DNA of 34,501 bases from Lachnospiraceae bacterium. Lineage in GTDB: Bacteria > Bacillota > Clostridia > Lachnospirales > Lachnospiraceae. Position 1 is the first letter of the stretch. Every line of letters starts with the position of its first letter. Below the pieces are notes generated by a model that was not told the origin of the DNA, did not search any database, and was given only the letters and a program-made list of their open reading frames with translations. Position numbers and translations under genes: made by a program. The DNA is taken from positions 1 through 34,501 of the forward strand of contig JAFWLM010000087.1 in NCBI GenBank assembly GCA_017511045.1, in the 5' to 3' direction. Of this stretch, positions 17,880 to 34,501 are shown piece by piece.

Positions 17880-20800
17880 TTAGGAAATCTGACGATTCTC
17901 ATGCTCTTTTGATGCGTATTTTTTCTTTAGCATGAACAGGCAGAGAACGATAATGCATCCCAAAGCTCCACCGGAACCAAACAGCCAGATCAGAGGACTT
18001 TCCCCATCACCTGTTTTGGGAGCTTCTGAGCCCTCTGAAACAGGGGTAAGATAAACGCTCTGCTCTGCATCTTCGAGATCTTCGTGTGCCGCGATCTTAA
18101 CATCCGCATCAAACAGTTCCTCAAAGGCGACCAGTGTGTCTCCTGCCAGCGCCGGATTCTGAAATACAAACGTCAGTTCTGTTACTCCGTCTGTCATTTC
18201 AGCAGTAAAACGCACGGATGATGTGATCTCTTTTCCTTCCTGATCCACTGCCGCTTTTCCGGTCTTTTTGTTCATCAGCTTTCCCCAGATCTCATATTCT
18301 GTTCCCGCAATAAGGCCTTCATATGCAATGGTATCGGTGAGGGAAAGCTGCGTTTCCGCATTTGCTTCATGCGTCTGTGTCGCATCGTTCAGCAGCGTAG
18401 TTGAAAGTTTCGGAAAATGGATCCTTTGCGTTTCCTTTAATTCATCCGGAAGATCCGGGAACAGAGTTTCGTCCTCACAGGCTGCAAGTGTTTCCTCATC
18501 GTGTTTTTTCCCTTTTCCGTCGTTGATCGTTACATAGCTGTACAGATATTCCGACACATAGATCGTGTGGCCTTCCAGTTTTGACGTATCAGCGATCTGG
18601 TATTTCAGGGTTTCCACATGCCCGTCAAAGTCATCTGTAATAAAATCCTTTGATGCACTTGCAAGCAGTTCCCCTGTATTCAGATCATGGACTTCACCCT
18701 TCAGGCGGTATTTAATGTAATCCCACTCCCCTTTATTGTTAACAAGGCGTTCGCAATCAGTGCCGGACATAGTAACCGTGTCAACGATCGTAACAGCTTC
18801 GCCTGCCTTCGCATAATGTGAAGAATCCGCCTGATTTACCGCAAGAGTGTGGACTTCGATCGGGGTATTTTTCATCGTGTAAAGATTTCCGTATGAAAGA
18901 TGTGCCCCGTCTCCTGTCCTTCGGATCACTCCGATATATTGTCCGTCTTCGAGTTCGATAAGGCTGCCGTCTTCTGCGATCAGGCTGGCACCGGTCACAG
19001 TATAGCCGGGTGCCGGTTTGACTTCTTCCACAGATATGGTCCCGATAGGCAGGATCACTTTGCCATCCACCTGATAAAGTGCGTCCGACTCATCGGCAGC
19101 AAAACTTGCAGGATCATCAAGTGCTGCAATACAGCGGCCGCTTGCCTCATCCTTTACCGTCCGCATCTTCCAGGTTCTTTTCGGAGAGCCGCTGACATCG
19201 CCGTCCGGATTATCAAAATATTTCACTACAAATTCTGCGCCTTCTAACGGAAATCCCATTGCATAGTTTTTCCCGGACTCTTTGAAGATCCTGATACTCA
19301 TCCTGTCAAATGCAGGCTGATCCGAGACCTTTAGAAGATACGGCGTGGAAGAAGTATGAGAAGATGTGATGGTTACTGTATAACTCCTGCTGTCCAGCTC
19401 ATAGTTTTTAGCGGGAGTCGTTTCTTTCACAGTATAAGTGCCGACCGGAAGTTTCAGCAGATTGCTGTCTCCATTTGCAGCCGTGGTAAGTGTTCCTTTT
19501 ACAGCGGATCCCTGATAGACCGTGTATACAGCGCCTGCCAGATCATAACATCCGTTTCCTCCGGTGATCGCAGTATCAGCGGAATCCTTGTGAAGCTTCA
19601 GATAGCCGTCGTTTCCGGTGCCCCGATAGACATCATATCGGTAATAGTATCCGGAGCCGGATGTTTGAAACTCCTCATTTGCCGAACCGATACCTGCGCC
19701 GTCCCACGCCCAGACTTCCGATGCAAGCCAGTTGCACTGCACATTACTGCTGTACGCGTGGATCAGCATGGCATCGTCTCCGCTCACTTCATAGACAATT
19801 GCTACATGTACATAATCTCCGAAGACAATGATATCTCCCGGCCGGATCTGTCCGGCCGCCACCTGACTTCGGATATCTGCAGCCGAGGTTCCGCCGCAGA
19901 CAAAGAGACCCGCATCCTGCAAAGCAGGTTTCCACCAGGCACTGGCAAAAGCTTCTCCGGTATATGGATAACTTAAGCTTCCGTCATCGTAAAACCAGTG
20001 CACCATGGCATTCACATAGCCGGAACAGTCAAAACCGGAGGCCGTCATCGCGCCCCAGTTCACCAGCCCGGAACACGGAGATACATAAGGAAGTCCGAGA
20101 TAGCTGAAGCCGGAATGAGCTTTCAGATTGGCTTTGATCTGGTCAAAGGATTTTGAAGTCAGTGATCCGGGACCGAAGCCATAGGCCGCAGCTTCCGCTG
20201 AAATATCCTCTTTTTGAAACAGCAGGCTTCCCACCATCGTATCGGCTTCCGGCATCGTAAATGAATAACGATAACTACCATCTTCATTTATTGTTTCTTC
20301 CGTCTCCACAATGCGTCCGTCCTGGTATTCATCTCCTGCCACGACCTGTGTGGAACTGAGAAGATATCCATCTTCGACCTCTGCTTTAACATTCACGGCT
20401 TCCCCCGGATGAAAAAGCATCTGCTGCCCGTCTTCTGTTACACCCGGTTCCGTCTCGTTATTGTTATGATCCACAAAGGAAAAATGGATTCCCTTCTGTT
20501 CAGAAAGCAAAACCGCAAAACTGCCTTCCGTACCGCTTATCTGTTCCTGTTGTTCCTTATAGTCCGTTTCGAAGATCAGTCCCTTGTTCAGTACAGAAGG
20601 GATCTGCGAAATGTCCCGAAGGGAAAGCCAGCCGCTCATTTTTGCCGCTGCATTTGATGTTGCCTTTGCAGTAACATTGTAATCAACCGTTGGTCCGTAA
20701 TTGGAGACCTCACAGCGGGAGCCGTCTTCGTTCGCTGCCCCGATAATGAGTGCATCTTCGACGCCGCCGGGAAGAAAGCCCTGCGCATTCCGGGCATTGT

Positions 20801-21554
20801 TTCCTGCTGCTCCAACGACTGTAATACCGGCCTCGCAGGCCTCACGGATCACCTGCTCAATGATCTCACTGTCTGCAGACTTCAGCGCACTTAAAGAGAG
20901 GTTAATGATCCTGACATCACTGCTCATTGCAAGTTTAATCGCCGCGTAAAGATCCGAGACATTTCCCCTTCCGGTTGACCCAAGTGCTTTGATGGAAAGG
21001 ATTGCCGCATCCGGATTCTGTTCATAGATACACTCCGCCATCTGCTGTCCATGGCCATTGTCATCCTGCGCGTTCTCTCCGATCACAGACACTGCCGTCT
21101 GCACGTCAGCTCCCGTATCGATCAGGGCAACATCAAAACTACCCTGTACCAGCGGGATCGTTCGTTCAGCTTCAGTAAAAGGATTCTCCTCCCGGCTCAT
21201 CTTCTCCAGTTCATTGCTGCCTTCATCTGCCTCTCCTTCCGCAATAAAAACCCCGGTATCCACTTCCACTGCTTCCGCCTTATCCAGGTAATAGGAATAG
21301 GCCTCGCCTGCCTGCTCCGGACTGTCAAACTGCAGAAGATAGACCTCTTCATAAGAAGACAAAACTGGTTCCTGTTCCGTAAAAATACCTTCATCATCTG
21401 TCTTTACCAGAATTCGGCAGGAAGAAAAATCCGGACCGGGTAAATCATTGCCGCTTCCGGTCTCCTCTGCCATGACGGGCACCAGCGCCGGGGTCTGGCA
21501 GAAAAGAAACAGTAAGGAAAGCAGTACCGGAAGCAATCTTTTCATTTTTTTCAT
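17880..21554 (-). CDS. Wall-anchored protein with subtilase, NlpC/P60, SpaA and VaFE domains
   Basis: A 1224-residue surface protein. Signal peptide 1-29. Compact S8 domain about 140-320, with Asp146 (ALIDTG), His168 (DNGHGQ), Asn252 (GAAGNN) and Ser300 (ATSNAAAKMSG). A beta-rich linker spans about 355-448. The NlpC/P60 domain spans about 465-645, with Cys510 (GFDCSGYV), His583 (YVHVAIV) and His599. Two SpaA-like Ig domains follow (about 650-745 and 750-900), then beta modules ending in a VaFE motif (LVAFEE, 1141-1146). The sorting signal APKTGD (1178-1183), a hydrophobic helix and a KKK tail end the protein. AGGAG stands eight bases before the ATG. It should be sortase-anchored and act on proteins and peptidoglycan. 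I know no characterised protein with this combination. Confidence 0.85.
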   Translation of the reverse strand: MKKMKRLLPVLLSLLFLFCQTPALVPVMAEETGSGNDLPGPDFSSCRILVKTDDEGIFTEQEPVLSSYEEVYLLQFDSPEQAGEAYSYYLDKAEAVEVDTGVFIAEGEADEGSNELEKMSREENPFTEAERTIPLVQGSFDVALIDTGADVQTAVSVIGENAQDDNGHGQQMAECIYEQNPDAAILSIKALGSTGRGNVSDLYAAIKLAMSSDVRIINLSLSALKSADSEIIEQVIREACEAGITVVGAAGNNARNAQGFLPGGVEDALIIGAANEDGSRCEVSNYGPTVDYNVTAKATSNAAAKMSGWLSLRDISQIPSVLNKGLIFETDYKEQQEQISGTEGSFAVLLSEQKGIHFSFVDHNNNETEPGVTEDGQQMLFHPGEAVNVKAEVEDGYLLSSTQVVAGDEYQDGRIVETEETINEDGSYRYSFTMPEADTMVGSLLFQKEDISAEAAAYGFGPGSLTSKSFDQIKANLKAHSGFSYLGLPYVSPCSGLVNWGAMTASGFDCSGYVNAMVHWFYDDGSLSYPYTGEAFASAWWKPALQDAGLFVCGGTSAADIRSQVAAGQIRPGDIIVFGDYVHVAIVYEVSGDDAMLIHAYSSNVQCNWLASEVWAWDGAGIGSANEEFQTSGSGYYYRYDVYRGTGNDGYLKLHKDSADTAITGGNGCYDLAGAVYTVYQGSAVKGTLTTAANGDSNLLKLPVGTYTVKETTPAKNYELDSRSYTVTITSSHTSSTPYLLKVSDQPAFDRMSIRIFKESGKNYAMGFPLEGAEFVVKYFDNPDGDVSGSPKRTWKMRTVKDEASGRCIAALDDPASFAADESDALYQVDGKVILPIGTISVEEVKPAPGYTVTGASLIAEDGSLIELEDGQYIGVIRRTGDGAHLSYGNLYTMKNTPIEVHTLAVNQADSSHYAKAGEAVTIVDTVTMSGTDCERLVNNKGEWDYIKYRLKGEVHDLNTGELLASASKDFITDDFDGHVETLKYQIADTSKLEGHTIYVSEYLYSYVTINDGKGKKHDEETLAACEDETLFPDLPDELKETQRIHFPKLSTTLLNDATQTHEANAETQLSLTDTIAYEGLIAGTEYEIWGKLMNKKTGKAAVDQEGKEITSSVRFTAEMTDGVTELTFVFQNPALAGDTLVAFEELFDADVKIAAHEDLEDAEQSVYLTPVSEGSEAPKTGDGESPLIWLFGSGGALGCIIVLCLFMLKKKYASKEHENRQIS

Positions 21555-21624: not shown

Positions 21625-21696
21625 GCACCCGTAGCCCAACGGATAGAGCGCAGGCCTCCGGAGCTTGAAATGGCGGTTCGATTCCGCCCGGGTGTA
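21625..21696 (+). tRNA. tRNA-Arg (anticodon CCG)
   Basis: A 72-base cloverleaf can be folded: acceptor GCACCCG/CGGGTGT (first pair G-U), D arm GCCC/GAGC with a C12-A23 mismatch, anticodon stem CAGGC/GCTTG with loop CTCCGGA (anticodon CCG, reading CGG), a 4-base variable loop, and T arm GGCGG/CCGCC with TTCGATT. The discriminator is A73; CCA is not encoded. A TTTTTT run follows at 21697-21702. It is the only plus-strand gene in the window. The mismatch and the G-U end pair make it slightly irregular but probably functional, given its strong promoter. Confidence 0.92.
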
Positions 21697-24687: not shown

Positions 24688-24716
24688 ATTTTATAGTGTA
24701 AAGCCTAAAGTTTCAA
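24688..24716 (-). promoter_or_regulatory. Predicted efp promoter
   Basis: Minus-strand TTGAAA (24716-24711) and TAAAAT (24693-24688), 17 bases apart; each matches five of six consensus bases. The -35 lies in the last codons and the -10 over the stop codon of the aroD-aroK fusion. It would start a transcript near 24681 covering efp and moeA. Confidence 0.55.
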
Positions 24717-25956
24717 CTATTTCTTTGCAGATCTCATCCACCGTTTTCTCATCTGTACTGATGACGATGTCGGCGACTTTCAGATATGCCTCTTCCCTGC
24801 TCTTCATCAGCTCCCTGACGTATTCCAGATCGATGTTATCTCCCAGCCAGGATCTGGTCTTGTCCCGCTGCATACGGAGAGCGATCGTCTCAGGTTTTGC
24901 GGTCAGAAGAACAATGACGCCTTTTTCTTTGATCAGTTCAATATTTTCGTTTCTGAGTACGATGCCGCCTCCGAGAGAAATGACCTGATAGTTTTTCTTG
25001 AGCACCTGTCTGAGATGCTTGGTCTCTTTGTCGCGGAACCCGCTTTCAGACTGTGTTGCGAAAATATCCGCGATGCTCATGTGCTCTTTCTTTTCAATAT
25101 AAGCATCCAGATCCAGCTTATTTAAGCCATAGTTCGTCGCGAGTGCATTGGCAACTGCCGTCTTTCCGGTTCCCATGAATCCGACCAGGAAGACTTTTTT
25201 ATAATTGTTGTGGATCACATCCAGGACGGTCTCCATTTTATCGATTCCGATCTGGCCCGGTGCAGATGATTTTGTGATCGCTGCAAAGGTGATCGCACTT
25301 TCAATGAACTCACCAAGAATACGGGTAATCATTCCCAAATGACCCATGGAAATAGCAACGACAGGACAGGATAAATAAGTACTTGTGACATTCTCCGCCG
25401 CGGTGATCAGATTTAACACATCTTTCTTTGTGTTTGGCATATAAGCTGCCTTTACGATATCCGCGCCAAGGTCCTGCATCATGAAAAAGTTTTCAATGAT
25501 CTCTTCCTGTGTCGGAGTTTTCTCGAAATCATGCTTTGAAATGATGATAAATACACCGAAATCCTTCAGCTTATCAACAAAGCTGCCATCACCTGAGAGA
25601 GCCGATGCCTCCACATCAACGATATCCGCATACCAGTTCTGTGCCACTACAAGAAGCAGCTTTTTGTAATATTCCAGAGAAGTCTGTGTTTTTCCGCCCT
25701 CTTCTTTTCGGCGGAAGGTAAAGATGATCGGCTTTTTGCAGATCTTACGGATCTTCCCTAAGATCGTCTTTGCAGCATCAATATCCAGGATCTTTGCATA
25801 ATGGTCCGCACGGAATTCGATCATGTCACAGTTTTCTGTGTTGGCACGCTCAGCAAGCTGAAGGATCTCGCCTTCCGTTTCTCCAAGCACGATCGCACAG
25901 ATCTTCGGTCTGCCTCTTCCGATTTCCAGGTTTCTGACTTTGATTGTTTTCGCCAT
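24691..25956 (-). CDS. Fused 3-dehydroquinate dehydratase (type I) and shikimate kinase
   Basis: A 421-residue bifunctional protein. Residues 1-250 form a type I (class I aldolase) dehydroquinase with Glu47 and Arg49 (EFRAD), the catalytic His142 (SKHDFEKTPT) and Schiff-base Lys169 (DIVKAAYMP), ending in SAPGQIG. Residues 255-421 are shikimate kinase, with P-loop GFMGTGKT (259-266), DLDAYIE, the FRDKE substrate motif, SLGGG (328-331) and a QRDKTRSWL lid. Together they carry out steps 3 and 5 of the shikimate pathway. A TTG at 25977 has no ribosome site; AGGAGG is five bases before ATG 25956. It follows the exporter pair by 43 bases. No other aro gene is nearby. Confidence 0.93.
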   Translation of the reverse strand: MAKTIKVRNLEIGRGRPKICAIVLGETEGEILQLAERANTENCDMIEFRADHYAKILDIDAAKTILGKIRKICKKPIIFTFRRKEEGGKTQTSLEYYKKLLLVVAQNWYADIVDVEASALSGDGSFVDKLKDFGVFIIISKHDFEKTPTQEEIIENFFMMQDLGADIVKAAYMPNTKKDVLNLITAAENVTSTYLSCPVVAISMGHLGMITRILGEFIESAITFAAITKSSAPGQIGIDKMETVLDVIHNNYKKVFLVGFMGTGKTAVANALATNYGLNKLDLDAYIEKKEHMSIADIFATQSESGFRDKETKHLRQVLKKNYQVISLGGGIVLRNENIELIKEKGVIVLLTAKPETIALRMQRDKTRSWLGDNIDLEYVRELMKSREEAYLKVADIVISTDEKTVDEICKEIVETLGFTL

Positions 25957-25999
25957 ACGGACCTCCTCTCTCAGCAAAATAGGGTTTGCTTCTTACAGC

Positions 26000-30199: not shown

Positions 30200-30649
30200 T
30201 TACTTACTTAGTTTCTTGATCTCATCAATAAAGGTATTAATATCTTTAAACTCGCGGTATACGGAAGCAAAGCGGACATATGCGACCTGGTCAACTTCTT
30301 TCAGACGGTCCATTACGATCTCACCGATCTGTGTGCTTTTGACTTCGGCGGAACCTAAGGAATATACATCGTTTTCGATATTATCGATCAACTGTTCAAG
30401 GCGCGCTGCAGAAACAGGACGTTTATAGCAGGCCCTAAGGACACCTTTTTCGATCTTCGTTCTGTCGTAGGCCTCCCGGTTATTATCTTTTTTAATTACG
30501 ATCAGCGGAATTGTCTCGATCTTTTCATACGTCGTAAACCGCTTCTCGCATCTGGTACATTCCCGGCGTCTTCTGATCGCACTGCGGTCTTCATTCGGCC
30601 TGGAATCCAATACCTTCGTATCTACACATCCGCAAAACGGGCATTTCAT
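30200..30649 (-). CDS. nrdR: Transcriptional repressor NrdR
   Basis: A 149-residue NrdR with a zinc ribbon (CPFC, Cys3 and Cys6; CTRC, Cys31 and Cys34, followed by KRFTTYE) and an ATP-cone domain from about residue 49. It senses ATP/dATP and represses ribonucleotide reductase genes. GGAGG is ten bases before ATG 30649; an upstream in-frame start at 30697 lies in a hairpin and is rejected. Two NrdR-box-like sites cover its own promoter (30713-30763), so autoregulation is likely. No ribonucleotide reductase gene is in this window. Confidence 0.96.
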   Translation of the reverse strand: MKCPFCGCVDTKVLDSRPNEDRSAIRRRRECTRCEKRFTTYEKIETIPLIVIKKDNNREAYDRTKIEKGVLRACYKRPVSAARLEQLIDNIENDVYSLGSAEVKSTQIGEIVMDRLKEVDQVAYVRFASVYREFKDINTFIDEIKKLSK

Positions 30650-30684
30650 AAAACTATTGCCTCCGAAAAAATTAAAATCTAAAA

Positions 30685-30707
30685 AACAGGAGCCCAAAAC
30701 TCCTGTT
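30685..30707 (-). terminator. Hairpin with T-rich 3' flank at the start of the nrdR transcript
   Basis: A perfect 8-bp stem (AACAGGAG with CTCCTGTT), a 7-base loop, and TTTTAGATTTT following on the minus strand. It is 113 bases after the HAD phosphatase stop and could terminate that transcript. The nrdR transcript is predicted to start inside the hairpin, near 30703, and would keep only about five of its base pairs. Confidence 0.7.
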
Positions 30708-30819: not shown

Positions 30820-31608
30820 TCAGATCAGACCAAATTCCTTCAATGAATGATAGATCCCGTCCCGCTTCATCGATCGGGCATGCAGCGGAATCCGTTCTAA
30901 GAGCTTCGGGTCACCGTTTTCCATGCAGACGCCATATTTCACAGTTTCCAGCATTTCAAGATCATTAAAGCTGTCTCCAAACGCATACGTGTTATCCATG
31001 TTGATCTTCAGGTGTTCCGCAAGCTTTAAGATCCCCTGTCCTTTCGAGATCGTAACCGGAAACGTTTCAAGCAGAACATCGTGGTGATTGATTGCATGAT
31101 AGCACCCGTGAAGGGTCTCTTTGAATGCATCCTTGTTGCTGCCTGTCATGAAAACCGCGCTTACCTTCGTGATCCCGTCCATACCTTTTTCATATGGACG
31201 GACCACGCTTGTATCCGGCAGAGAAAAGATGCGTCTGATCTCTCCCTCAGGATCTTTGCAGATCTCCGGATCATAAAAAATATGATCCGGGGCTTCAGAG
31301 AAAGGATTAAAGCCGAACCTTTTAAAATTCTCTATCAGCTCCAGCGCCGCTTCCGGAGAAATATTTTTCTCAAACAGTTTTTCTCCCTGCCACTCTCCGT
31401 ATGAACCCACACCGGCAATCAGGCCCTCGCATTCGAGAGCCTTGACCTTCGGAAACAGCATGCATTTTGTGCGGCCTGTGCACAAAACAGGATGATGTCC
31501 GTTCTTTTTCAGTTTTTCAATTGCCTCCTGCGTCGACTCCGGAACTCCGAGTCTCGGCGTATAGAGCGTGCCGTCAATATCAAAGAAGATATACTTATCG
31601 TTGTTCAT
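30820..31608 (-). CDS. Cof-type HAD hydrolase
   Basis: A 262-residue HAD IIB phosphatase. Motifs: FFDIDGTL (Asp10, Asp12), CTGR, the lysine region TISKGQGI, and GDSFNDLEML. The cap is the alpha/beta type seen in sugar- and flavin-phosphate phosphatases such as Cof and YidA. The substrate is unknown. It follows the repeat/GH78 gene by ten bases and has no good ribosome site, so it is probably translated by coupling. Confidence 0.9.
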   Translation of the reverse strand: MNNDKYIFFDIDGTLYTPRLGVPESTQEAIEKLKKNGHHPVLCTGRTKCMLFPKVKALECEGLIAGVGSYGEWQGEKLFEKNISPEAALELIENFKRFGFNPFSEAPDHIFYDPEICKDPEGEIRRIFSLPDTSVVRPYEKGMDGITKVSAVFMTGSNKDAFKETLHGCYHAINHHDVLLETFPVTISKGQGILKLAEHLKINMDNTYAFGDSFNDLEMLETVKYGVCMENGDPKLLERIPLHARSMKRDGIYHSLKEFGLI

Positions 31609-31618
31609 ATATTTTGTC

Positions 31619-34501
31619 TTACTCTTGTACAGCTTCCTTTCGCAGCGTTACAGACGGCATATAGGAATAATCAAAGCTGCCGTTTTTAACACTTACCTCA
31701 TTTCCGCCGGCTGCACAAACCGGATAATATGGCAGTGTGATCCTTGCAGCTGCTCCTTCCGGAACCTCAAAATGGAACTTCAGGGAACCGTCTTCCTTCA
31801 GTTCCCAATCGGAAACGATCTCTCCCACCGGAGCTTTAAAAACTGCTTTGCAGAAGTCGACCCGTCCGTCTGGAACCGGAGAAAGGCCAATGGTTTTAAA
31901 TCCCGGTTCCAATGCTTTGATTCCGGCCATATATTCATAAATGAATTCCACTTCATTATTAAAACTCTTTTGATCCTGATCAAGCAGGATATCATACGCC
32001 TTCTCTGTCATGTTATTCTCTGCAAGGACCTTACAGATAAACGGAGCCGCACAAGGTGCACATTTTAAGAGATTGCCATCTTTGCCAAGACGTTTTTCCA
32101 AACCTTTAGCTGCACGTTCTCTGTCAACATACAGGCCAAACTGCAGCGCAAGAACATATGCGGTCTGAGTATCAACAGACAATCTTCCGGCTCCTGTATA
32201 GTACTCTTCCAGGAATGCCTGTTTGATCTTTCTGGCCAGTCTTCCATAGGCAAACGCATCCTGTTCCCTGCCTAATACAGCTGCAGCTTCCGAAGTAATG
32301 CGGGCTGCTTCATAGTAGCAGGCAGAAGCAATGTATTCCGTCTCTGTCTCCTGGTCCATAGAGACCCATGCCTCACTTGGTGTATCAAAATCGCAAAGAT
32401 AATGTTTCTCTCCACGTTCTGCATCTTTTTCGTCAACGGAATCAGCCCATGCTTTGATCAGATCATAGTTTTCAGAAAGGATCTTCTCATCGCCATACAT
32501 CTGATACAGGTTCCAGATGATCTGCGGCGCATATGCTGCCTGATCGGATGCCGGCTGTTCTTTTAAACCTCTCAGATACTGCATCAGGAACTCTTTAATG
32601 TCCATGTTATAGGATGCTGCCGGCGCATAAGCAAAGACATCTTCTGCTTCACTCTCTTCCGGCATAACAATGGAGGTTCGTTTCTGGCCTGCAAAGAGTT
32701 CCTCATAGATCGTGTTTAAACGCTCATTCGAGGTTTCCACGATTCCCGTTCTCTGAATATCCGAATAAAGAACGCATCCGCTGAAGTCAGCAGGGTTCAG
32801 CTCACCCTCCCATCCGGATACCTTTACATAGCGTCCGGTGAAATAGGTGAAGTGCGGACTGACAACTTCCGGCATACCATCCGAGATAAAAGTAAATCCG
32901 GCATCTTCTGTTTCCTCAGGGAAAGTGCCGTCAATCAGTTCCTCAGCAAATGTAAGCTGAACACTTGCCCCCTTCGGCTGAGCGGAATTGAAGGCAACAA
33001 AGCCGGCAAAATCCTGCCCGAAATCAAGAATATAGGAACCATCTTCGCTTTGGATCACTTCTTTAACATCCAATCTTTCTTTCACAACGACCGGAAGCGA
33101 ATATCTTTCAACGAGCGGAAGATCCAGATCTAAAACTGCAACATTTCTTTCCAGATTATCCTTACCCTCCCACAGCAGACGGTTAAAGATCTCACCCTTA
33201 TCAAGACTGCTGAATTCAATATCAGATGCGTAATAGCCCCAGGTCTCATCACTGGAGATACGGATGGTTTCCGTCTCGCTTTCAAGAGCGACCGGCAGTC
33301 CTCCGACTAATGCCCCCTCTGTCGCGATCGGAGCATCCTCCTGACTGGTAAGGCTGTCCAGTGTTTCGCTGAGATCATCTTCAACGGCTGAAACCGGCTG
33401 GACCTCTTCCGGATTCTCCTCATCTTCCGCTTTCATTACAAACGGAAGACCTCCGACAAGTGAAACTGCCGGCTCTGCAGCTTTCTCTTCCGGTTCATCA
33501 TTTTTATGTTCTAATGCTTCCGGAGTAATGGAAAGACCACCTACGAGTTCTCCCTCTGTTGCAAAATTCTCCGTTTCATTTTTCGTAATATTATCAACTG
33601 CATCCGCCAGTCCGTTTCCTACAAATGCAGCAGGCTTTACTTCAAACGGAAGGCCTCCCATAAGTGCTGCGTCAGTTCCTGCCTCAGGAGCCTTGGCCGC
33701 AGCTTCAAAAGCTTTGAGGACCTCATCCGAAGCTTTTCCGGCTTCCTGATCTGCAGCGAGCGGAAGTCCTCCAACCAGACTGCCCTCTCCTGCAAGCTGT
33801 TCTTCTGCTTTAACGATATCTTCCACCGCATCAGCTAAGCTTTCCTCAACAAACGCCTCTGCCTCATCCGGCTCTTCGTCATGATCCGTATCTTTTACAA
33901 CAAACGGCAGACCGCCGACCAGAGTTACTGCTCCGGACTGATCCTCTTCAGCTTCAGCCTCAAATCCGTTATCATCGATCAGTTCAGAAAGTTCTTCATC
34001 GGACAGGATAGAACCTAAGTCTTCCGGCAGTTCATCTTCGATAATGAAGCTCTCTTCGCTGTCCTCTTCGATCACAGGTTCACCTATCTCAGCTTCTATT
34101 TCATCTTCTAAAACGGCTGCCAGTTCTGCATCAAGTTCATCTTCTGTGAACATGTCTTCCAATTCCGCTTCGCCGCCTTCATCGATCATGTCGAAATCCT
34201 CATCGGCTTCTTCCACTTCATCATCAGGAAGGATATCTTCTAACAGTTCATCAGAATCCGGCTGTTCCTCATCCTTTGGCTCTGCTTCGAACATTGCTTC
34301 CAGTTCTGCATCCGTGATGCTGTATGGCGCAACTTCAAGATCAGCACCCGGAGAAGAGATCGGCTCTTCCTCCATGATTTCTTCAATGCTTTCCGGACTT
34401 ATGCTGTTCTCTTCATAGCTTTCCTCTGCATCTGCTGATCTGTATGGTGCAGGCGGGTTTTCTTCATCCCAATCTTCAAAATCAAAGATTTCGAGATCAT
34501 C
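31619..34501 (-). CDS. Acidic repeat protein with degenerate GH78 (alpha-L-rhamnosidase) region, 5' end beyond window
   Basis: The frame is open to the window edge; 960 residues are visible and the true start lies beyond 34501. The first ~410 visible residues are Glu/Asp-rich, probably disordered, with six LVGGLP-type motifs in three larger repeats. The rest follows the GH78 layout: a beta domain with YILDFGQDFAGFVAF, HFTYFTGRYVKVSG, then an alpha/alpha-barrel start (NERLNTIYEELFAGQK) and SYNMDIKEFLMQYLRGL, and a C-terminal beta domain. The catalytic DERLGW region is replaced by EESEAEDVFAYAP, and the stretch normally carrying TTIWERW is deleted. It is probably a non-catalytic rhamnosidase relative. 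Whether it has a signal peptide is unknown. Confidence 0.75.
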   Translation of the reverse strand, partial: DDLEIFDFEDWDEENPPAPYRSADAEESYEENSISPESIEEIMEEEPISSPGADLEVAPYSITDAELEAMFEAEPKDEEQPDSDELLEDILPDDEVEEADEDFDMIDEGGEAELEDMFTEDELDAELAAVLEDEIEAEIGEPVIEEDSEESFIIEDELPEDLGSILSDEELSELIDDNGFEAEAEEDQSGAVTLVGGLPFVVKDTDHDEEPDEAEAFVEESLADAVEDIVKAEEQLAGEGSLVGGLPLAADQEAGKASDEVLKAFEAAAKAPEAGTDAALMGGLPFEVKPAAFVGNGLADAVDNITKNETENFATEGELVGGLSITPEALEHKNDEPEEKAAEPAVSLVGGLPFVMKAEDEENPEEVQPVSAVEDDLSETLDSLTSQEDAPIATEGALVGGLPVALESETETIRISSDETWGYYASDIEFSSLDKGEIFNRLLWEGKDNLERNVAVLDLDLPLVERYSLPVVVKERLDVKEVIQSEDGSYILDFGQDFAGFVAFNSAQPKGASVQLTFAEELIDGTFPEETEDAGFTFISDGMPEVVSPHFTYFTGRYVKVSGWEGELNPADFSGCVLYSDIQRTGIVETSNERLNTIYEELFAGQKRTSIVMPEESEAEDVFAYAPAASYNMDIKEFLMQYLRGLKEQPASDQAAYAPQIIWNLYQMYGDEKILSENYDLIKAWADSVDEKDAERGEKHYLCDFDTPSEAWVSMDQETETEYIASACYYEAARITSEAAAVLGREQDAFAYGRLARKIKQAFLEEYYTGAGRLSVDTQTAYVLALQFGLYVDRERAAKGLEKRLGKDGNLLKCAPCAAPFICKVLAENNMTEKAYDILLDQDQKSFNNEVEFIYEYMAGIKALEPGFKTIGLSPVPDGRVDFCKAVFKAPVGEIVSDWELKEDGSLKFHFEVPEGAAARITLPYYPVCAAGGNEVSVKNGSFDYSYMPSVTLRKEAVQE
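33290..33923 (-). repeat. Three long repeats carrying six LVGGLP motifs
   Basis: Motif copies lie near 33903-33923, 33760-33780, 33643-33665, 33531-33553, 33440-33460 and 33290-33312. They alternate between an LVGGLPFxxK type and an AxEGxLVGGLP type that follows a helix-like LADAVxxI segment, making three units of 70-85 residues. The DNA is diverged, so the repeats appear old rather than recently amplified. Confidence 0.8.

What the first reader, a model, noticed from the sequence alone, without database searches (positions are those of the whole stretch)
31619..34501. Pseudo-rhamnosidase fused to an acidic LVGGLP-repeat region
Seen: the GH78 framework is kept, but the segment holding the general acid (DERLGW in relatives) reads EESEAEDVFAYAP and about 40 residues around the expected base (TTIWERW) are missing. 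Upstream is a ~400-residue acidic region with six LVGGLP motifs in three units. Known: active GH78 enzymes need both acidic residues. Inference: the fold has been reused as a binding or scaffolding module, with LVGGLP as a repeated docking motif for a partner. I know of no described family with this layout.
Basis: partly seen in the sequence, partly recalled or inferred. Interest (0 to 1): 0.8.

Follow-up and report, generated by a model that had tools for sequence, protein, structure and literature searches.

The report
Dead rhamnosidase carrying giant acidic loop
A bacterial sugar-cutting enzyme has lost its cutting site and instead carries a huge, strongly negatively charged loop, yet evolution still preserves it, so it most likely works as a binding or scaffolding protein rather than an enzyme.

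Summary
The minus-strand ORF at 31619-34501 is a GH78 (alpha-L-rhamnosidase) protein in which the stretches holding the general acid (SaRha78A Glu636) and the base (Glu895, role recalled) are deleted; a close relative searched the same way aligns across both.

The title's "fusion" is wrong. The gene runs off the contig; its start lies on contig C85, which shares an exact 141-bp end. In the joined 1242-residue protein the acidic region is a 574-residue insert at a turn inside the N-terminal GH78 domain. G010, G008 and G002 show this order on one contig.

The family is in 8 of 14 genomes of the genus and was not recognised in overlapping samples of 397 family, 392 order and 391 class genomes. 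All 7 usable cores lack both catalytic motifs. LVGGLP occurs in 3 of the 8. dN/dS is 0.05-0.26 in all regions compared, so this is no decaying gene.

Best reading: a cytosolic pseudoenzyme displaying a polyanionic tethered loop as a binding scaffold. Partner and activity are untested; structure prediction failed.

The parts
31619..34501 (-). Pseudo-GH78 gene, 3' part (960 codons plus stop); the 5' part lies on contig G000:C85
   Evidence: Pfam
34361..34501 (.). 141-bp exact overlap with the end of contig C85, across which the gene continues
33272..34501 (-). Window part (410 residues) of the 574-residue acidic insert (full-protein residues 119-692)
33272..33937 (-). Three LVGGLP units (full-protein residues 471-692)
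33905..33922 (-). LVGGLP motif 1
33761..33778 (-). LVGGLP motif 2
33647..33664 (-). Motif 3, LMGGLP
33530..33547 (-). Motif 4, LVGGLS
33443..33460 (-). LVGGLP motif 5
33293..33310 (-). LVGGLP motif 6
33053..33271 (-). Second half of the split N-terminal GH78 domain (full residues 693-765)
   Evidence: alignment; not matched by Pfam on its own
32765..33052 (-). PF05592 Bac_rhamnosid domain
   Evidence: E 1.8e-17
31949..32752 (-). PF17389 six-hairpin domain, catalytically degenerate
   Evidence: E 2.5e-42
32636..32662 (-). PEESEAEDV, where relatives have the DERLGW general-acid loop
31961..31981 (-). Junction where about 42 residues holding the TTIWERW base are missing
31727..31924 (-). PF17390 C-terminal domain
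   Evidence: E 7.3e-14
30820..31608 (-). HAD hydrolase ORF (PF08282), 10 bp downstream; also next to the gene in G010 and G011
30200..30697 (-). nrdR-like ORF, downstream neighbour in 7 of 7 ortholog contigs that reach past the gene's 3' end
   Evidence: in G002 the ORF listing missed it; one search places it there

Best explanation
This is a cytosolic pseudoenzyme derived from an ordinary GH78 rhamnosidase. Shown by sequence: the GH78 domains are kept, the catalytic pocket motifs are erased, a very acidic loop of hundreds of residues replaces a turn of the N-terminal domain with both ends anchored in that domain, and the regions compared are under purifying selection. Inferred: the GH78 body now serves as a folded stalk displaying a disordered polyanionic loop, and the loop's charge plus short hydrophobic motifs (the LVGGLP units in this clade, acidic amphipathic segments in the others) hold partners multivalently. 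The protein would then act as a binding scaffold or condensate former, not as a glycosidase. Cytosolic location is also inferred. The partner is unknown.
For: Both catalytic segments are deleted against SaRha78A, with a relative as positive control. All 7 usable orthologous cores lack DERLGW, TTIWERW, GDWLA, MNSLNHY and TGFVGT. The 7 form one side of a branch at 100/100, next to enzymes that keep both catalytic motifs. The insert sits at the same turn in 4 of 4 aligned orthologs. Complete inserts of 379-872 residues carry a net charge of -169 to -276 and fall on the disordered side of a charge-hydropathy plot. The richest 100 residues hold 43-61 D+E in five pseudo proteins against 19-22 in seven uninserted relatives. 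dN/dS is 0.05-0.26 across the core, N-domain and insert comparisons. Mean pairwise identity of pseudo proteins is 0.60 in N1 and 0.37 in the six-hairpin domain, against 0.52 and 0.64 in active relatives.
Against: Inserts of different sub-clades are barely more alike than locally shuffled controls (z -0.1 to 2.5), so no shared docking motif is visible. dS between G000 and G011 or G010 is high (1.6-2.6), so those dN/dS values are rough. Codon use does not suggest high expression in G008.
Confidence: 0.5

Rival explanations
1. The protein keeps or has gained another enzymatic or sugar-binding function in a remodelled pocket, and the acidic loop is an accessory.
For: The six-hairpin domain is still recognised by Pfam at E 2.5e-42 and the core's dN/dS is low.
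Against: Pocket motifs are lost together, and the six-hairpin domain is the least conserved part in the pseudo family (0.37) although it is well conserved in active relatives (0.64).
Confidence: 0.17
2. LVGGLP units are the function: a repeated docking or self-association motif (sticker) for one partner.
For: Six motifs in three aligned units in each of the 3 genomes that have them; shuffle maximum 2; dN/dS 0.11-0.23.
Against: Not seen in the other 5 of 8 orthologs (three of them partial), and found nowhere else in 14 genus genomes at E 1; no Pfam or convincing PDB relative.
Confidence: 0.17
3. The loop is mainly a bulk polyanion (cation buffer, solubility or crowding device) with no specific partner.
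For: Net charge is kept while sequence and length turn over; many tandem repeats in the G008 and G002 genes.
Against: Insert sequence is conserved inside clades (z 10.7 for G000-G010 and 5.7 for G002-G003; LVGGLP units).
Confidence: 0.12
4. A decaying pseudogene or an assembly artefact.
For: The gene is cut by a contig end in 5 of 8 genomes (G000, G011, G003, G004, G005), in 4 of them inside the insert.
Against: Low dN/dS; no stop inside the reported frames; G010, G008 and G002 are uninterrupted on one contig.
Confidence: 0.03
5. A chemotaxis or flagellar adaptor: the insert's ITDEELEALF-like segments imitate the FliM EIDALL motif (motif recalled).
For: A pattern chosen after looking matches in 5 of 8 inserts, with shuffle means of at most 0.03.
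Against: FliM is found in 0 of 14 genus genomes while the control finds it in 4 of 14 named genomes.
Confidence: 0.01

Closest known systems
GH78 alpha-L-rhamnosidases (SaRha78A 3w5m, 6gsz, 6i60)
   Same: Same Pfam domains in the same order; clear sequence relationship.
   Different: General acid, base and surrounding pocket motifs deleted or replaced; 574-residue acidic insert; gene among housekeeping genes.
Uninserted GH78 proteins L031, L114, L116, L117 (other genera)
   Same: Group next to the pseudo family in the tree (99/96, midpoint root).
   Different: 910-929 residues, no such insert, DERLGW and TTIWERW present.
Pseudoenzymes derived from glycoside hydrolases (Klotho, chitinase-like proteins; recalled, with only search listings seen)
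   Same: Hydrolase fold kept with catalysis lost.
   Different: Those known to me are extracellular or membrane receptors and lectins; none recalled is a bacterial cytosolic GH78 with a polyanionic loop.
Bacteroides thetaiotaomicron Rho (PMC13269538, passages seen)
   Same: A folded bacterial protein with a 301-residue disordered region that drives condensation.
   Different: Rho remains functional as a termination factor, and its disordered region is described as a K/E-rich plus a prion-like part, not polyacidic.

Membership tests
GH78 fold family (sequence membership) | PF08531 N-half, PF05592, PF17389 and PF17390 in order | tested here: met
Active GH78 rhamnosidase | General acid equivalent to SaRha78A Glu636 (DERLGW) | tested here: not met
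   motif kept in 0 of 7 usable orthologous cores
Active GH78 rhamnosidase | Base glutamate of TTIWERW (Glu895; role recalled) | tested here: not met
   0 of 7 keep the Glu (G008 and G004 read TAIWTSR)
Active GH78 rhamnosidase | Rhamnose-contact residues (KoRha Trp226, Asp229, Trp341, His508; PMC4690510 passages; placing the last two on GDWLA and MNSLNHY is my inference) | tested here: not met
   motifs lost as sets; an Asp aligns at the WTGD position in 3 of 7 rows (G000, G011, G002) and a Trp in the GDWLA block in 2 of 7 (G000, G011)
Active GH78 rhamnosidase | Hydrolysis of an alpha-L-rhamnoside | not testable with these tools
   needs an assay
Pseudoenzyme | Homologous to an enzyme family, catalytic residues lost, gene under purifying selection | tested here: met
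Pseudoenzyme | A demonstrated non-catalytic function | not testable with these tools
   no binding data
Intrinsically disordered acidic region | High net charge and low hydropathy | tested here: met
   marginal for the LVGGLP part
Intrinsically disordered acidic region | Predicted or measured disorder in a structure model | not tested
FliM-type CheY-binding protein | Flagellar switch present in the genome | tested here: not met
   0 of 14

The most novel reading that the evidence does not exclude
A new kind of bacterial scaffold: a dead glycosidase whose N-terminal domain turn has become an insertion port for a fast-evolving polyanionic loop, conserved in charge but not sequence, which gathers partners or forms condensates in the cytosol.
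Probability: 0.35. Interest if true: 0.78.

Novelty: new variant of a known kind. Interest (0 to 1): 0.6.

Why it matters
Of 25 GH78 relatives whose frames were checked, 22 keep a D.R.[GP]W motif, and all 14 active rows of the tree (12 distinct) keep both catalytic motifs; this family has lost both and kept the domains. It offers an evolutionary series in one genus (complete inserts of 379 to 872 residues at one site) for asking how an enzyme becomes a scaffold and whether selection can act on the charge of a loop while its sequence turns over. Domain-based annotation would probably call it a rhamnosidase, which is probably wrong.

Tried and rejected
FliM/CheY reading of the insert's acidic amphipathic segments: rejected, FliM in 0 of 14 genus genomes. 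High expression inferred from codon use: not supported, pseudo gene parts 0.47-0.52 against groEL 0.77 (itself in the reference set) and nrdR 0.52 in G008. Relatives of the insert in Pfam, PHROGs and PDB: only weak matches (Sos7 5.3e-4 and extensin 2.3e-3, both below the curated cut-offs; PHROG 0.036; acetyl-CoA carboxylase 0.51). A second copy of the insert in the genome: none for the 5' part in G000 or for the LVGGLP part in the genus. Conserved motifs between divergent inserts: near shuffled controls. RNA element near the gene: none at gathering threshold in the five sources scanned. Long GH78 frames elsewhere: three held ones (L029, L030, L088) have at most 22 D+E per 100 residues and keep a DERxGW motif; other long frames listed were not examined. 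Literature: no paper on a dead GH78 in the listings seen: 15 of 182 listed; 0; 0; 3; 1; 10 of 50; 3. One search was a mis-aimed query and is not used.

Full report
WHAT IS THERE. The finding is a minus-strand open frame, 31619-34501, open at the window's edge. Pfam places PF05592, PF17389 (six-hairpin) and PF17390 on it. The window is a whole contig, C48, of a 2.04-Mb, 81% complete genome. The last 141 bases of the window are identical to the end of contig C85. There the frame continues back to MSREWTAKWIGPE..., which Pfam calls Bac_rhamnosid_N, PF08531, matching only profile positions 2-69 of 172. Joining the two gives 1242 residues. The order N-domain, acidic region, core is seen uninterrupted on single contigs in G010, G008 and G002. 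G011 carries the same two halves on two contigs, with etfA upstream of the first and the HAD gene and nrdR downstream of the second, as in G000.

AN INSERT, NOT A FUSION. In the joined protein the acidic region spans residues 119-692. Ordinary relatives have at that point a short turn (for example RLTYEDG-TVKTIGTDETW); the pseudo protein reads EFEIEVYK, then the insert, then ETIRISSDETWGYYASDI. So the loop is anchored at both ends in the N-terminal domain, taken to be a beta-sandwich from family knowledge. Complete inserts are 574 (G000), 604 (G010), 379 (G008) and 872 (G002) residues; D+E over the eight pieces measured, partial ones included, is 29-53%; net charge of the complete ones is -169 to -276. 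The five inserts tested lie on the disordered side of a charge-hydropathy plot, the LVGGLP part of G000 only just. The richest 100 residues hold 43-61 D+E in five pseudo proteins against 19-21 in four active relatives and 22 in three long GH78 frames. G008, G004, G002 and G003 also have a second acidic insert before the six-hairpin domain.

CATALYTIC SITE. Against SaRha78A (3w5m), Glu636 sits in an 8-residue gap of the window protein, and chain residues 877-918 are unmatched. Chain position 636 was checked to be the Glu of DERLGW; Glu636 near O-1 of rhamnose is from PMC4690510 (passages); Glu895 as base is recalled and is the Glu of TTMWERW. The relative L022, searched the same way, aligns through both at E 2.2e-95. 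In an alignment of 7 pseudo and 4 active cores the pseudo rows lose DERLGW, TTIWERW, GDWLA, MNSLNHY and TGFVGT; isolated letters survive, such as an Asp at the WTGD position in 3 of 7 rows and a Trp in the GDWLA block in 2 of 7. The eighth ortholog, G005, has only 50 core residues and was left out. Of 25 relatives from loci, 22 match D.R.[GP]W and 11 match the WE.W motif; many of the rest stop at a locus edge and were not checked one by one. All 14 active rows of the tree (12 distinct) have both motifs; 17 of 31 candidates were left out because the longest frame was short or lacked the start pattern used for trimming.

DISTRIBUTION AND HISTORY. By N-domain profile 6 of 14 genus genomes have the family at E 4e-60 or better; G003 and G004, whose contigs begin inside the insert, are added by their cores, giving 8 of 14. 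Evenly drawn samples of 397 family, 392 order and 391 class genomes, which overlap, gave much weaker next-best matches (1.5e-29 against 1.6e-65; 6e-149 against 1.2e-264; 3.6e-26 against 1.6e-65). Three long frames that were held have no acidic insert. The seven pseudo cores are one side of a branch, 100/100, next to L031/L114/L116/L117 (99/96); the root is a midpoint and three pseudo rows have deviant composition.

LOCUS. groEL lies directly upstream in G008, G005 and G002, and about 12.5 kb upstream on C85 in G000; etfA is the nearest upstream gene in G000 and G011. nrdR lies directly or one HAD gene downstream in 7 of 7 contigs that reach past the gene. In G001, G006 and G007, which lack the family, the groEL-nrdR interval was read and holds other genes.

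SELECTION. Nei-Gojobori dN/dS: G000-G011 insert end 0.114, LVGGLP part 0.113, core 0.059; G000-G010 N-domain 0.131, 5' insert 0.258, LVGGLP 0.230, core 0.152; G008-G004 core 0.141; G002-G005 N-domain 0.047, insert 0.163, short core 0.062. The G000 pairs have dS of 1.6-2.6, so their values are rough. Constraint has shifted: pseudo pairs (6 pairs of 4) are 0.60 identical in N1 and 0.37 in the six-hairpin domain; active pairs (6 pairs of 4) are 0.52 and 0.64.

LVGGLP. Six motifs of the pattern [LMVI][VMIL]GGL per protein in G000, G010 and G011; shuffles give a mean of at most 0.017 and never more than 2. Nine units align as xVTLVGGLPFxV, an acidic stretch, a SLxDAVDxI-like segment and EGxLVGGLPx. 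The region matches only itself in 3 of 14 genus genomes and nothing convincing in Pfam or PDB. Between sub-clades inserts are hardly more alike than locally shuffled ones (z -0.1 to 2.5; for G000 only residues 119-470 were used), but within clades they are (10.7 and 5.7). Hydrophobic residues avoid lag 2 (z -1.6 to -4.9) and lean to lag 4 (z 1.0 to 3.9) in the seven inserts tested, which suggests amphipathic helical segments.

HOW IT MOST LIKELY WORKS. Shown by sequence: lost catalytic motifs, kept domains, anchored polyanionic loop, purifying selection. Inferred: cytosolic location (no hydrophobic N-terminus; no predictor run), disorder of the loop, and a role as a multivalent binding scaffold. 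A precedent for a large disordered region steering a folded bacterial protein into condensates is B. thetaiotaomicron Rho (PMC13269538, passages). Partner and phenotype are unknown.

LIMITS. No structure model could be obtained.

Noticed in passing
window 17880-21554 (-): 1224-residue protein with subtilase, NlpC/P60, SpaA prealbumin-like and T-Q ester-bond domains together; it looks like an unusual surface protein.
   Followed up: no
window 24691-25977 (-): Type I 3-dehydroquinase joined to shikimate kinase in one frame.
   Followed up: no
L038 7500-11100 and L039 6200-11500: Many DNA tandem repeats in the G008 and G002 genes (17 and 27 rows, overlapping), against one row in the window part of the G000 gene; fits slippage as a source of loop growth.
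   Followed up: partly
cores in L037, L038, L039, L040: A second acidic insert between PF05592 and the six-hairpin domain; in L037, L038 and L040 acidic residues also fill the former general-acid loop.
   Followed up: partly
ends of G000:C48, G000:C85, G011:C56, G011:C15, G003:C4, G004:C8, G005:C100: In five of eight genomes the gene is cut by a contig end, in four of them inside the insert, suggesting it is repetitive or variable among strains.
   Followed up: no
window 21625-21696 (+): A tRNA gene, the only Rfam match at gathering threshold in the five sources scanned.
   Followed up: no
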